44,565 nucleotides of DNA, from assembly GCF_000722635.1 (NCBI RefSeq), contig NZ_JOKH01000002.1, positions 313,122-357,686 of the forward strand, written 5' to 3'. Below, one piece after another: positions 8,704-22,293 of this stretch. Numbering within the stretch: position 1 is the first letter of the stretch; the number at the start of each line of letters is the position of its first letter. Source of the stretch: Endozoicomonas numazuensis. Lineage in GTDB: Bacteria > Pseudomonadota > Gammaproteobacteria > Pseudomonadales > Endozoicomonadaceae. Below the pieces are notes generated by a model. That model made no database searches and had not been told where the DNA came from. It saw only the letters and a program-made list of their open reading frames with translations. The translations under genes and the position numbers were made by a program.

Positions 8704-8720
8704 TTGATAGAGGCTATCAA
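8704..8720 (+). promoter_or_regulatory. 17-bp palindrome, candidate upstream activator site
   Basis: TTGATAG-AGG-CTATCAA is a perfect inverted repeat (7-bp arms, 3-bp spacer). It lies about 135 bp upstream of the -24 element, the usual distance for binding sites of sigma54 activators, and is outside any coding region. The likely binder is the activator encoded at 20776-22293. Inferred from position and symmetry. Confidence 0.6.
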
Positions 8721-8794
8721 AACTTCCTATGCAGAAAAAAACCTATCACTCCGTAAGCTTATAAGATTAATATTTATTAAGCATTATTAATATA

Positions 8795-8807
8795 TATCAA
8801 CAACTTA
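8795..8807 (+). promoter_or_regulatory. IHF consensus site
   Basis: TATCAACAACTTA matches the IHF consensus WATCAANNNNTTR at every defined position and lies in AT-rich DNA between the palindrome at 8704 and the -24/-12 promoter at 8855. IHF bending there would bring the activator to RNA polymerase, the standard sigma54 arrangement. Confidence 0.6.
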
Positions 8808-8852
8808 AACACAAGTATAATCGCAACCCTCCAATTTCTCTGGGATCGATAG

Positions 8853-18894: not shown

Positions 18895-20771
18895 GGGTCC
18901 TGGATCGAATGACCGGGCAGCAGCTGGTTTTAAACCAGCTGCCTGACGCATTAACTCCCGGACGCTATGTTGCACTCGATACGCTGCATGCAAACAACCA
19001 TTCTGAAATCACCCCGGGCACATTTATTGTGTCCGACGGGAGCGAGCAACTCAGCCTGAATGGACGGGGTTTCTCAGTAAATGACGACTCTGCTAATAAG
19101 ACTGATAAAGACTCTGGTTATTGGATGAAAAAAGCCATTATCCAAATCGCAGGTCATATTAGAACGCTTGAAATAAATGATACTGAAGAACTCCCTACTC
19201 CATTGCTGCCTAGCAGTATCATTGACATCCAGTATGATAAACTGCTGGACTTACTGGACACTGCCCTCAATAAGGGGCATTTACACTCGATTAGCATTCG
19301 CCCTCGAATCGATATGAAATATGACAGCCAGCTAATGCCTGTCAGCCGAGCAAGGAAAGTAGCGTCAAATGCAAACAGACATCTTGCCGCACATTCTGAA
19401 TGCTGGCAAAAGCGAACACTGACAGGAGTTATGCCAAAACAAATTCTGGGATTAGTCAGTGAAGATGAGTACAACCTGTATGAAAATCAGGTTTATGCTC
19501 GACTACTGGACAATCTTCAGACTTACCTGACAGTTAGGCTCAACGATTTAAGGGCGCTTGAACTCGACTTAAATGAATTCGAGAAGATTGAAAAATCAGA
19601 AGAGCTTTATCACAAGCTGATTTCTGATATTTGTGAACTGTGGGGCAAAACATTTTCTGTAGATGAAACCGAAGAAATCCTTAAGACTTTACGTTCACAA
19701 ATCAGCACTATTGAAGCATATCTCAGAAAGATTAAGGGACTTAAACAGAGAGGCCTTTACAAACAGGTTCCGAGATCTGCAAGAGTACCGAGTCAAATTC
19801 ACGTTACCAACATACTCGCTCACGACCAACATTACCGACACCTTGTTGGATTATGGCAAACACTGATTGAGGTTATGTCATCATCCAATCTACCTGCTTC
19901 TGAAGTCATGAATGCCAACATTGAACTTCAGGAAAGTTATATGGATTATTGCAAGCTCGTGATAATCCGTTCTTTGAAGGCTTTGGGTTTTAGGCTGAAA
20001 TCTGCTTCAGAAGAAATATTTAATTTTGAGAGAGGCCGTCAGGAGGTCTTGCTTAAGAAGGAAAGCTATCAATGGCTTGTTCAGTCAGAACTAGCTTCGC
20101 TTGACCTTCATTTTACTCCTATTTCTTGCAGAGACGGACACGACCTGCAAGCAACGATTGACAATAATAAAGTCGTTATTCCCTGTATTCCCGGAAAAGG
20201 ACAACAAAAGCACCCTAACACTTGGTTATCTGGAGGTAATAGAGATCCGCTGTTTATTTCACCTGAAGACTTTTATCTGGAAGAAAGAATGGTGGTTCTG
20301 CTGAAAACCTGGCTATGGTCGGGGGTAATGCAGAGTTATGGTCTGGCGATAGATAAATTATGTCGCCCCTTTGTCCAGTATGCTGAGTCAGAAACATCTC
20401 TCTTTAGAATTTCTGGTTCATCTTCCATCAAAGTCATAGCTCCTCTTTCACCGAAGAAGCAAACAGAACTGCACCAGGCACTTCAAGATACCGGTCTATC
20501 AGCAGACCTGCAGAAAGCGGTCAAACAATCTGTTCAATATGTTAACTTTCTTTCCTCTTGCCCTGACTGCGGAAGCAAAGGAGAGTTTACCCCATGGGAA
20601 AGAGATTGCTTCAAATGTGACTGTTCATCCTGCGGTAACCAATGGAGTATTTCTTACACCAAAGGCCATCGTATAGGTAAATTCACCGCCAATAAGAGCA
20701 ATGAGCCCGGCTTTGATCAGAATGGCCGCTGGAATTACTCGTTTAACTTGTCTGAGCTCTCGAGCCCATAA
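18891..20771 (+). CDS. DUF2357 McrC-like protein with C-terminal zinc ribbon
   Basis: A 626-residue protein paired with the McrB-like gene (ATGA overlap). The segment 'EDEYNLYENQVYARLLDNL' at about 190-208 is the DUF2357 signature (YENRFV-like). In this family a restriction-endonuclease-like nuclease domain follows; I did not locate a clear D-(D/E)xK core, though 'FEKGRQ'-like and 'LDLHFTPI' segments around 375-410 are in the right place. The C-terminus has C..C and C..C pairs (CPDCG, CDCSSCG; about 556-585) forming a zinc ribbon. Probable role: nuclease or stalk subunit activated by the coiled-coil McrB-like NTPase. Confidence 0.75.
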   Translation: MRVLDRMTGQQLVLNQLPDALTPGRYVALDTLHANNHSEITPGTFIVSDGSEQLSLNGRGFSVNDDSANKTDKDSGYWMKKAIIQIAGHIRTLEINDTEELPTPLLPSSIIDIQYDKLLDLLDTALNKGHLHSISIRPRIDMKYDSQLMPVSRARKVASNANRHLAAHSECWQKRTLTGVMPKQILGLVSEDEYNLYENQVYARLLDNLQTYLTVRLNDLRALELDLNEFEKIEKSEELYHKLISDICELWGKTFSVDETEEILKTLRSQISTIEAYLRKIKGLKQRGLYKQVPRSARVPSQIHVTNILAHDQHYRHLVGLWQTLIEVMSSSNLPASEVMNANIELQESYMDYCKLVIIRSLKALGFRLKSASEEIFNFERGRQEVLLKKESYQWLVQSELASLDLHFTPISCRDGHDLQATIDNNKVVIPCIPGKGQQKHPNTWLSGGNRDPLFISPEDFYLEERMVVLLKTWLWSGVMQSYGLAIDKLCRPFVQYAESETSLFRISGSSSIKVIAPLSPKKQTELHQALQDTGLSADLQKAVKQSVQYVNFLSSCPDCGSKGEFTPWERDCFKCDCSSCGNQWSISYTKGHRIGKFTANKSNEPGFDQNGRWNYSFNLSELSSP

Positions 20772-20775
20772 CAAT

Positions 20776-22293
20776 ATGAAAAAAAACCTGATCTCCTGGA
20801 TAGGCAAACATGATATCAATGCTAAAGAGTCGGGCCAATTAGGCCCGGTTCTGGCAGCCATCCTTGATGCAGAAGACAAAAATTCACCTTATGATGCCAT
20901 CCATTTGCTATGCAATTATCCCAGTGAGTCCTTGCACTCGTACGTAATCTGGTTAAAAGAACAAACTTACAGAGAGGTTCCCATTACTTCTTGCCAGGTT
21001 CCATTAAGTTCGCCAATGGCTTATGAGGAAATTTATCCTGTAGTTTCCAATCAACTAAGCCAATTACAAGCAACCTATCCGGATTATCAGAGAGTCGTTC
21101 ATTTAAGTCCTGGTACACCAGCCATGACAGCAATCTGGGTGCTTCTGGTCAAAACAAAATACCCTTCTGTATGTATTGAGTCTTGGCGCGACAGCACAGG
21201 GATTCAGCACGTACATAATCGCGAACTACCCTTCCAAATCTCTGCCGAATTCACGTTGGAAGCCATTAAGAATGCCAGCTTTCGACTCGAACAAATTGAA
21301 GGTAGCTCCCCGAGTTTCGAAGGCATCACGGGCAACAGCAAAGCTATGCAGACAGTCCAAGAAAGAGCTAAAAAAATGGCCGTACGTGATGTGTCAGTTT
21401 TAGTCCTTGGAGAAACCGGAACGGGCAAAGAGGTACTGGCCAAAGCCATTCATAATGCAAGCCTGCGTCAAAACTCTCGTTTTGTAGCAGTAAACTGCGG
21501 GGCTCTCCCGGAAGACTTGGCTGAATCATTACTATTTGGTCACAAAAAAGGAGCATTCACAGGTGCTCACAAAGATCATGCAGGCTTCTTCGAACAGGCT
21601 GATGGTGGAACTTTATTCCTGGATGAAATTGGAGAACTATCACCTCTATTGCAAACCAAACTATTAAGAGTTCTGCAGGAAAAAGAGTTCACACCTGTCG
21701 GTAGTGAGAAATTGATAAGAAGTGATTTTCGTCTAATTTCTGCGACACATCAAAATCTCACAGATTTGATTGAGGAAGGAAGATTTCGGGAAGACCTGTT
21801 TTACCGGCTAGCTATTGGCATTATCAAGCTCCCCCCTGTCAGAGACAGAGGGGATGATATAAGTCTTCTTGCCAACACTATGCTCCATCAAATTAATGAA
21901 GAGCTGGCAGACCAGCCAGATTACTGCAAAAAGACACTGACGAGTAAGGGTCATGCATTCATTGCCAGACAGCCATGGCTTGGGAATGTGAGAGAGCTGA
22001 ACGCAAGCCTGTTAAGAGCTGCAATTTGGACAGATAGCGCCCAGATTTGTGAACATGATATTGAAGCGTCATTAATCTCAAGAAGAGCGAACACACAACT
22101 GCTTCCAAACCATCTGCATGAAAGCGTTGATCTTAGCGATGTCGTAGGTAAAGTTGCTGGTCACTATATTTCTCTTGCATTAAAAGAAACTCATGGAAAT
22201 AAGGCTGCAGCCGCCAGGCTTCTTGGGTTCAACAGTTCACAGGTACTAACGAACTGGATTACAAAATATTCTGTTGACGAAAGCAGCCAATAG
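20776..22293 (+). CDS. Sigma54-dependent activator with N-terminal CARF-like sensor domain
   Basis: A 505-residue enhancer-binding protein. Residues 1 to about 155 look like a CARF/RtcR-type Rossmann-like ligand domain: 'RVVHLSPGTPAMTAIWVLLV' (about 106-125) has the small-residue loop and following helix of CARF folds (xxTGGTxxM pattern). The AAA+ domain carries Walker A GETGTGKE (212-219), GAFTGA (about 259-264, contact with sigma54), Walker B GGTLFLDEIGEL (about 278-289) and 'RFREDLFYRL'. A Fis-type helix-turn-helix is at about 468-495 (NKAAAARLLGF). RtcR, the nearest known design, senses RNA-end ligands. It ends the operon and almost certainly drives the promoter at 8853. The start at 20776 follows the previous stop by four bases. 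Confidence 0.85.
   Translation: MKKNLISWIGKHDINAKESGQLGPVLAAILDAEDKNSPYDAIHLLCNYPSESLHSYVIWLKEQTYREVPITSCQVPLSSPMAYEEIYPVVSNQLSQLQATYPDYQRVVHLSPGTPAMTAIWVLLVKTKYPSVCIESWRDSTGIQHVHNRELPFQISAEFTLEAIKNASFRLEQIEGSSPSFEGITGNSKAMQTVQERAKKMAVRDVSVLVLGETGTGKEVLAKAIHNASLRQNSRFVAVNCGALPEDLAESLLFGHKKGAFTGAHKDHAGFFEQADGGTLFLDEIGELSPLLQTKLLRVLQEKEFTPVGSEKLIRSDFRLISATHQNLTDLIEEGRFREDLFYRLAIGIIKLPPVRDRGDDISLLANTMLHQINEELADQPDYCKKTLTSKGHAFIARQPWLGNVRELNASLLRAAIWTDSAQICEHDIEASLISRRANTQLLPNHLHESVDLSDVVGKVAGHYISLALKETHGNKAAAARLLGFNSSQVLTNWITKYSVDESSQ

What the first reader, a model, noticed from the sequence alone, without database searches (positions are those of the whole stretch)
8704..22293. Sigma54/CARF-controlled TerY-PP2C-kinase operon joined to helicase, HEPN-like and McrBC-like genes
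Eight genes in one operon (overlaps or gaps of 0-6 bases) combine a phosphorylation triad, a large SF1 helicase, a winged-helix/Rx4H protein, a coiled-coil McrB-like NTPase, a DUF2357 partner and a sigma54 activator with a CARF-like sensor. TerY-P triads near helicases and McrBC-like genes are known from comparative genomics. I am not aware of a characterised version driven by a sigma54/CARF activator with a HEPN-type component. Inferred model: a nucleotide or RNA-end signal made during infection or DNA damage binds the CARF-like domain; the operon is induced; the kinase/phosphatase/vWA module gates a DNA-processing machine.
Basis: partly seen in the sequence, partly recalled or inferred. Interest (0 to 1): 0.9.

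Follow-up and report, generated by a model that had tools for sequence, protein, structure and literature searches.

The report
RtcR-controlled CoCoNuT defence operon
This is an eight-gene operon of a recently described kind of predicted bacterial anti-virus system (a Type II CoCoNuT), carried among conjugation and defence genes; its damage-sensing activator is, unusually, the last gene of the operon that it seems to switch on through a special promoter.

Summary
Window 8934-22293 encodes vWA, PP2C, zinc-ribbon kinase, UPF1-like helicase, winged-helix/HEPN protein, McrB-like NTPase, McrC-like protein and a CARF-AAA-HTH (RtcR-type) activator. The first seven recur in the same order in 21 of 32 loci mapped and in 7 of 7 later ones.

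The system is known in kind: a Type II CoCoNuT with RtcR, predicted by Bell et al. 2024 (PMC11090510). RNA is a likelier target than DNA: one HEPN motif (RNPASH), no (D/E)xK in the McrC nuclease-like stretch.

Three points I did not find in the parts of that paper that I read. (1) RtcR is the last gene here, as in 3 of 27 RtcR-bearing loci. (2) A sigma54 site lies before the operon in 27 of 27 loci with RtcR and 0 of 8 without (five of the eight are Actinobacteria); many have a GTAA-N6-TTAC enhancer-like motif, and the window shares a variant with its nearest relative. (3) Where RtcR lies 9-21 kb upstream, the CoCoNuT still has its own sigma54 site, against the published idea that it is simply read last in a superoperon. 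All is sequence inference; nothing was assayed.

The parts
8767..8780 (.). candidate RtcR enhancer copy 1 (TTAATATTTATTAA)
   Evidence: 87 bp above the -24 element; two mismatches to GTAA-N6-TTAC (not significant by itself); its reverse complement is in a 15-mer shared with the nearest relative L121
8787..8800 (.). candidate RtcR enhancer copy 2 (TTAATATATATCAA), 20 bp after copy 1
   Evidence: same 20-bp spacing as pairs in L028, L033 and L040
8795..8807 (+). exact IHF consensus TATCAACAACTTA (overlaps copy 2)
   Evidence: p 0.025 in this locus
8854..8869 (+). sigma54 -24/-12 site TGGCACGGTTTTCGCT, 64 bp before the vWA start
8934..9608 (+). TerY-like vWA protein (DTSGSM)
   Evidence: Pfam VWA 1.1e-9; PADLOC TerY 0.0085 only
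9605..10303 (+). PP2C-type phosphatase
   Evidence: Pfam PP2C_2 3e-40
10307..11749 (+). Ser/Thr kinase with C-terminal CxxC pairs (zinc ribbon)
   Evidence: Pfam Pkinase 1.2e-11; CISC 322, CRSC 328, CPFC 340
11755..15069 (+). CnuH: UPF1-like SF1 helicase
   Evidence: Pfam AAA_11, AAA_12; NCBIfam IGHMBP2-family helicase 6e-39, under cut-off; PADLOC MkoA 5.9e-89
15050..16531 (+). CnuE: winged helix plus C-terminal HEPN motif RNPASH
   Evidence: PADLOC MkoB 1.2e-7
16537..18894 (+). CnuB: putative coiled coil plus McrB-type GTPase with NxD (NHD)
   Evidence: Pfam AAA_5 2.9e-6; GISGTGKT, LLDE, NHD
18891..20771 (+). CnuC: McrC-like protein, zinc ribbon, no (D/E)xK in residues 365-482
20776..22293 (+). 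RtcR-type CARF-AAA-HTH sigma54 activator (GAFTGA, SPGTPAM), last gene of the operon
22346..22364 (+). terminator-like hairpin after the operon
   Evidence: 3 found in the stretch, 2.2 expected: not above chance

Best explanation
A Type II CoCoNuT, a predicted immune operon with a TerY-P triad, controlled by its own RtcR-type activator. Most likely course: infection or RNA damage makes an RNA-end or nucleotide signal (inferred); it binds the CARF domain and frees the AAA ring of RtcR (by analogy with the rtc operon); RtcR on a tandem enhancer at 8767-8800, perhaps helped by IHF, opens the sigma54 promoter at 8854-8869 (sites shown, use inferred). The transcript makes the TerY-P switch, the helicase/HEPN pair CnuH-CnuE and the GTPase pair CnuB-CnuC, which would attack RNA (inferred). 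As RtcR is the last gene, induction would also make more activator: positive feedback (inferred).
For: Domains, motifs and gene order. Sigma54 score of 24 or more in 27 of 27 RtcR loci and 0 of 8 without; held-out sites in 6 of 6 RtcR loci. GTAA-N6-TTAC exact in 6 of 21 loci (0.06 expected), within one mismatch in 12 of 21 (1.46 expected), and within one mismatch in 3 of 6 held-out RtcR loci. Window and L121, both with RtcR last, share a 15-mer in this region (14 or longer in 0.15% of 2000 shuffled pairs) and the helix SSQVLxNW. Host has sigma54 and no RtcB, so this RtcR is not there for RtcB-type repair.
Against: The sigma54 pattern is not enriched over the window as a whole (22 matches at up to 2 mismatches, 28.6 expected). 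The score cut-off of 24 was set after seeing scores; at 25 it is 21 of 27 against 0 of 8, and the other strand gives 6 of 27 at 24 and 2 of 27 at 25. Exact IHF sites failed to recur: 0 of 6 held-out RtcR loci. The window's own enhancer has two mismatches and p 0.8. Sites that abut the rtcR end (L020, L023, L025, L034, L038, L117) lack the enhancer motif (two or three mismatches). L027 has an altered helix (QVM) yet the exact GTAA motif. How basal RtcR is made is unknown: no good sigma70 match before rtcR. No assay exists for the ligand, target or protection.
Confidence: 0.7

Rival explanations
1. One reading: a DNA-processing or restriction machine (helicase plus McrBC) gated by TerY-P phosphorylation, the HEPN protein being accessory.
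Confidence: 0.15
2. Same operon and promoter, but the CARF domain senses a cyclic oligonucleotide from another defence system rather than an RNA end.
For: CARF domains of CRISPR systems bind cyclic oligoadenylates (as told in PMC11090510); the host lacks RtcB, so the usual RtcR partner is absent.
Against: Closest named relative is RtcR, whose CARF binds tRNA fragments with cyclic ends (PMC7790460, passages). No cyclase was looked for in the window or genome.
Confidence: 0.2
3. RtcR is a neighbour that controls other genes; the operon is expressed independently of it.
For: RtcR's place varies among loci: 12 directly 5', 10 far 5', 1 divergent, 1 far downstream on the other strand, 3 last.
Against: Wherever RtcR lies, a sigma54 site stands before the CoCoNuT; in the window and L121 rtcR starts 4-5 bp after cnuC.
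Confidence: 0.05
4. A metal or oxidative stress (Ter-type) response operon rather than defence.
For: TerY-P triads are linked to tellurite resistance (as told in PMC11090510).
Against: Setting beside Wadjet-like and AbiE genes; PADLOC Mokosh-type hits of CnuH and CnuE.
Confidence: 0.04

Closest known systems
Type II CoCoNuT with RtcR (Bell et al. 2024, PMC11090510)
   Same: Gene set, order, NxD GTPase, single RxxxxH HEPN, zinc-ribbon CnuC, TerY-P triad, RtcR-type CARF regulator
   Different: RtcR is last, not at the 5' end; no BrnT/DUF4258-like gene before vWA (present in L021 and in L121); a promoter is mapped here by sequence
RtcR of the rtcBA RNA repair operon (PMC7790460 passages; PMC9650030 listing only)
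   Same: CARF-AAA-HTH with GAFTGA; NCBIfam RtcR 4.1e-105 but under cut-off (352.6 of 650 bits)
   Different: Not beside rtcBA; no RtcB in this genome; PADLOC places it in RtcR_PspF2
CARF-NtrC regulators beside restriction-modification systems (PMC4012209, passages)
   Same: Same architecture and setting
   Different: No promoter or CoCoNuT link in the passages seen
Mokosh type I (PADLOC MkoA, MkoB)
   Same: CnuH matches MkoA (5.9e-89) and CnuE matches MkoB weakly (1.2e-7)
   Different: Mokosh lacks the McrBC-type pair and RtcR (recalled, not from a call)

Membership tests
Type II CoCoNuT | CnuB: McrB-type GTPase with NxD in place of NxxD | tested here: met
   NHD at 614, followed by E; the only N..D is at 500, outside the motif; feature
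Type II CoCoNuT | long coiled coil in CnuB | tested here: inconclusive
   Residues 21-400: 5 Pro, 4 Gly, 72% EKQRDLA; but a 3.5-residue periodicity test was not significant (rank 0.56); no model of CnuB made
Type II CoCoNuT | UPF1-like SF1 helicase CnuH encoded beside cnuB/cnuC | tested here: met
Type II CoCoNuT | SmpB-like and RNase-toxin-like domains at the CnuH N-terminus | not tested
Type II CoCoNuT | CnuE: winged helix plus one HEPN with RxxxxH (two HEPN in III-A) | tested here: met
Type II CoCoNuT | CnuC: DUF2357, zinc ribbon, inactivated PD-(D/E)xK; no Hsp70 domain (III-A) | tested here: met
   CxxC at 557, 573, 578; no (D/E)xK in 365-482; beta domain, helical bundle, mixed region and zinc ribbon in the model. 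DUF2357 by homologue only; the nuclease fold match is weak; absence of Hsp70 rests on length (626 aa) and this layout
Type II CoCoNuT | TerY-P triad with zinc-ribbon kinase (usual, not core) | tested here: met
Type II CoCoNuT | restricts phage, acts on RNA | not testable with these tools
   no assay; predicted only in PMC11090510
RtcR-type CARF sigma54 activator | CARF-like N-terminus, AAA with GAFTGA, C-terminal HTH | tested here: met
RtcR-type CARF sigma54 activator | binds RNA with 2',3'-cyclic ends | not testable with these tools
   no assay
sigma54 promoter with enhancer | -24 GG / -12 GC element and upstream activator sites | tested here: met
   sigma54 site; enhancer in the window is a variant supported by L121 only

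The most novel reading that the evidence does not exclude
CoCoNuT superloci are RtcR regulons, not single long operons: the CoCoNuT, and some of the genes between, each have an RtcR-responsive sigma54 promoter with an enhancer often paired at 20 bp, so the predicted RNA-cutting machine is switched on directly by the damage signal and not last. In the lineage of this window the sensor lies inside the operon that it activates, giving a self-amplifying, possibly all-or-none switch, and its enhancer and recognition helix have changed together.
Probability: 0.5. Interest if true: 0.6.

Novelty: new variant of a known kind. Interest (0 to 1): 0.45.

Why it matters
CoCoNuTs are common predicted immune systems whose control has been inferred from gene order. 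A named promoter, candidate enhancer and sensor make that control testable with a simple reporter and show where the induction signal would enter. If the CoCoNuT has its own RtcR promoter even where DNA-restriction genes lie between it and RtcR, the published timing idea (DNA restriction first, RNA attack last, by order of transcription) needs revising. A sensor placed inside its own operon would be a natural feedback switch for a possibly suicidal defence.
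Full report
What is there. Eight + strand genes run from 8934 to 22293 with junctions from an overlap of 20 to a gap of 5 bases: vWA, PP2C, Ser/Thr kinase with CxxC pairs, a 1104-residue SF1 helicase, a winged-helix protein ending in an RNPASH motif, a McrB-type NTPase (GISGTGKT, LLDE, NHD) with a long polar N-terminal half, a McrC-like protein with CxxC at 557, 573 and 578, and a CARF-AAA-HTH regulator with SPGTPAM and GAFTGA. A terminator-like hairpin follows at 22346-22364 (such hairpins are not above chance there). 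The host genome is 6.34 Mb in 31 contigs; in it one match covers the whole regulator, the five others only query residues 163-443 at most. It has one sigma54 gene and no RtcB (the same search rings in E. coli).

Conservation. A genome scan kept 80 of 259 relatives. I mapped the 30 best (L022-L051) and two plasmid loci, Rhodoferax L020 and Polaromonas L021: 21 of 32 hold all seven core genes in order. Seven loci from other genomes, fetched later, all do.

Where RtcR lies. In the 27 loci with a CARF-RtcR in the locus or its genome: directly 5' in 12 (L020, L021, L023-L026, L032-L034, L038, L047, L117); about 9-21 kb 5' in 10 (L028-L031, L035, L036, L045, L119, L120, L122; distances worked out by me from the coordinates); divergent 5' in 1 (L116); 15 kb downstream on the other strand in 1 (L027); last gene in 3 (window, L121, L040). 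L121 is the nearest relative by RtcR (63% identity). It has a gene before vWA like the Polaromonas DUF4258 gene (score 180 against at most 42 in 200 shuffles), the BrnT-like gene of Bell et al.; the window has only 64 bp there. Bell et al. tell of RtcR at the 5' end; I saw no 3' case in what I read, and the supplement was not open to me.

The promoter. One fixed sigma54 score over 730 bp before the vWA motif gives 24 or more in 27 of 27 RtcR loci and 0 of 8 others (Fisher 4e-8), and 25 or more in 21 of 27 and 0 of 8. Against this: the cut-off was set after seeing the scores; the opposite strand reaches 24 in 6 of 27 and 25 in 2 of 27; in the window as a whole the pattern is not enriched (22 matches, 28.6 expected). 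Of the eight loci without, five are Actinobacteria (by record titles; sigma54 not expected there, recalled; their genomes were not searched for RtcR). The three others are L022 (an RtcR-like neighbour, 25% identical, with GAFTDA in place of GAFTGA), L037 and L118 (no CARF-RtcR in the genome). In the six held-out loci with RtcR the site is found in 6 of 6 (p 0.007 to 0.056 each), and not in L118 (p 0.80). Some held-out loci are near kin of earlier ones (L119 has the same 16 letters as L028).

Enhancer and IHF. In the 21 RtcR loci of the first set, GTAA-N6-TTAC occurs exactly in 6 (0.06 expected) and within one mismatch in 12 (1.46 expected), mostly 77-108 bp above the -24 element, several times as pairs 20 bp apart (L028 99/79, L033 108/88, L040 86/66). 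The motif was found in those same loci; in the six held-out RtcR loci it recurs within one mismatch in 3 and exactly in 2. Exact IHF sites occur in 11 of 21 (0.28 expected), 8 of them 31-41 bp above -24, but in 0 of 6 held-out loci (one mismatch in 3). The window has a variant, TTAATATTTATTAA and TTAATATATATCAA 20 bp apart, which by itself is not significant (p 0.8). Its support is L121: a 15-mer there is the reverse complement of window 8766-8780, and 14 or more shared letters arise in 0.15% of 2000 shuffled pairs. Of 26 RtcRs compared, only the window and L121 have the helix SSQVLxNW; 20 read QTL, L032 and L033 QTF, L116 QSY and L027 QVM. L027 keeps the exact GTAA motif in spite of QVM, which weakens a simple reading. 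Sites that abut the end of rtcR (L020, L023, L025, L034, L038, L117) lack the motif: unexplained.

Superloci. I scanned ten regions: the DNA before the CoCoNuT in nine of the ten loci with RtcR far 5' (L031 was not fetched) and in L027. Sigma54 score of 24 or more with an enhancer within one mismatch: 11 on the coding strand, 0 on the other. Eight lie directly before the CoCoNuT (in L030 and L036 that site has two mismatches); three lie among the genes between (L134, L137, L138). Five regions have a sigma54 site 4-20 bp after the rtcR stop (L130, L131, L136, L137, L138) without the enhancer motif; the four others were not scanned at that place. So the CoCoNuT seems to have its own RtcR promoter even in superloci. 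Bell et al. infer timing from gene order; their main text has the word promoter once, for supposed RtcR-independent ones.

Mechanism. Shown: gene content, conservation, co-occurrence of sites. By analogy: CARF of RtcR binds tRNA fragments with cyclic ends (PMC7790460, passages and section heading); RtcAB act on RtcR (PMC9650030, start of abstract in a listing). Inferred: induction by infection, RNA attack by HEPN, TerY-P as a switch, feedback through rtcR as last gene. My odds: identity as a Type II CoCoNuT 0.93, RtcR-sigma54 control 0.8, RNA as target 0.6, feedback 0.5.

Surroundings. To the left lie F-type conjugation genes (TraE, TraK, TrbI, TraV, TraI_2, TraD/G, DUF4400, TraF) and a PrtN-like gene; to the right a tyrosine integrase, AbiE genes, a transposase piece, Wadjet-like genes and a second integrase. 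The operon looks like cargo of an integrated conjugative element; its ends were not mapped.

Verdict. A real and intact-looking Type II CoCoNuT, known in kind, with an unusual place of the regulator and a conserved promoter design that I did not find in print. That statement rests on the paper searches (listings; of the papers listed I opened only PMC11090510, PMC7790460 and PMC4012209) and on the term search.

Noticed in passing
window 28540-35192 (-): Wadjet-like set: JetD_C/DUF3322, SbcC-like coiled-coil ATPase, MksE/DUF4194 and DUF3375 genes.
   Followed up: no
window 25362-27080 (+): AbiEi/AbiEii type IV toxin-antitoxin pair.
   Followed up: no
window 24361-24664 (-): Two pieces of a group II intron (Rfam group-II-D1D4-1 and -3); a long intron-encoded frame was not looked for.
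   Followed up: no
window 473-8380 (+), 22378-23547 (-), 42896-44140 (-): F-type conjugation genes on the left and two tyrosine integrases on the right: the window seems to span an integrated conjugative element with a defence cargo.
   Followed up: partly
window 8403-8663 (+): PrtN-like (PyocinActivator, 2.1e-19) small gene between the conjugation genes and the CoCoNuT promoter.
   Followed up: no
window 37228-40167 (+): 979-residue protein with weak beta-propeller (WD40-type) hits only, all under cut-off; low G+C region.
   Followed up: no
L020, L023, L025, L034, L038, L117: Sigma54 sites that overlap or abut the 3' end of rtcR lack the GTAA-N6-TTAC motif, unlike most sites far from rtcR.
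   Followed up: partly
window 11755-16531: CnuH and CnuE match PADLOC MkoA and MkoB of Mokosh, a link not named in the main text of PMC11090510.
   Followed up: no
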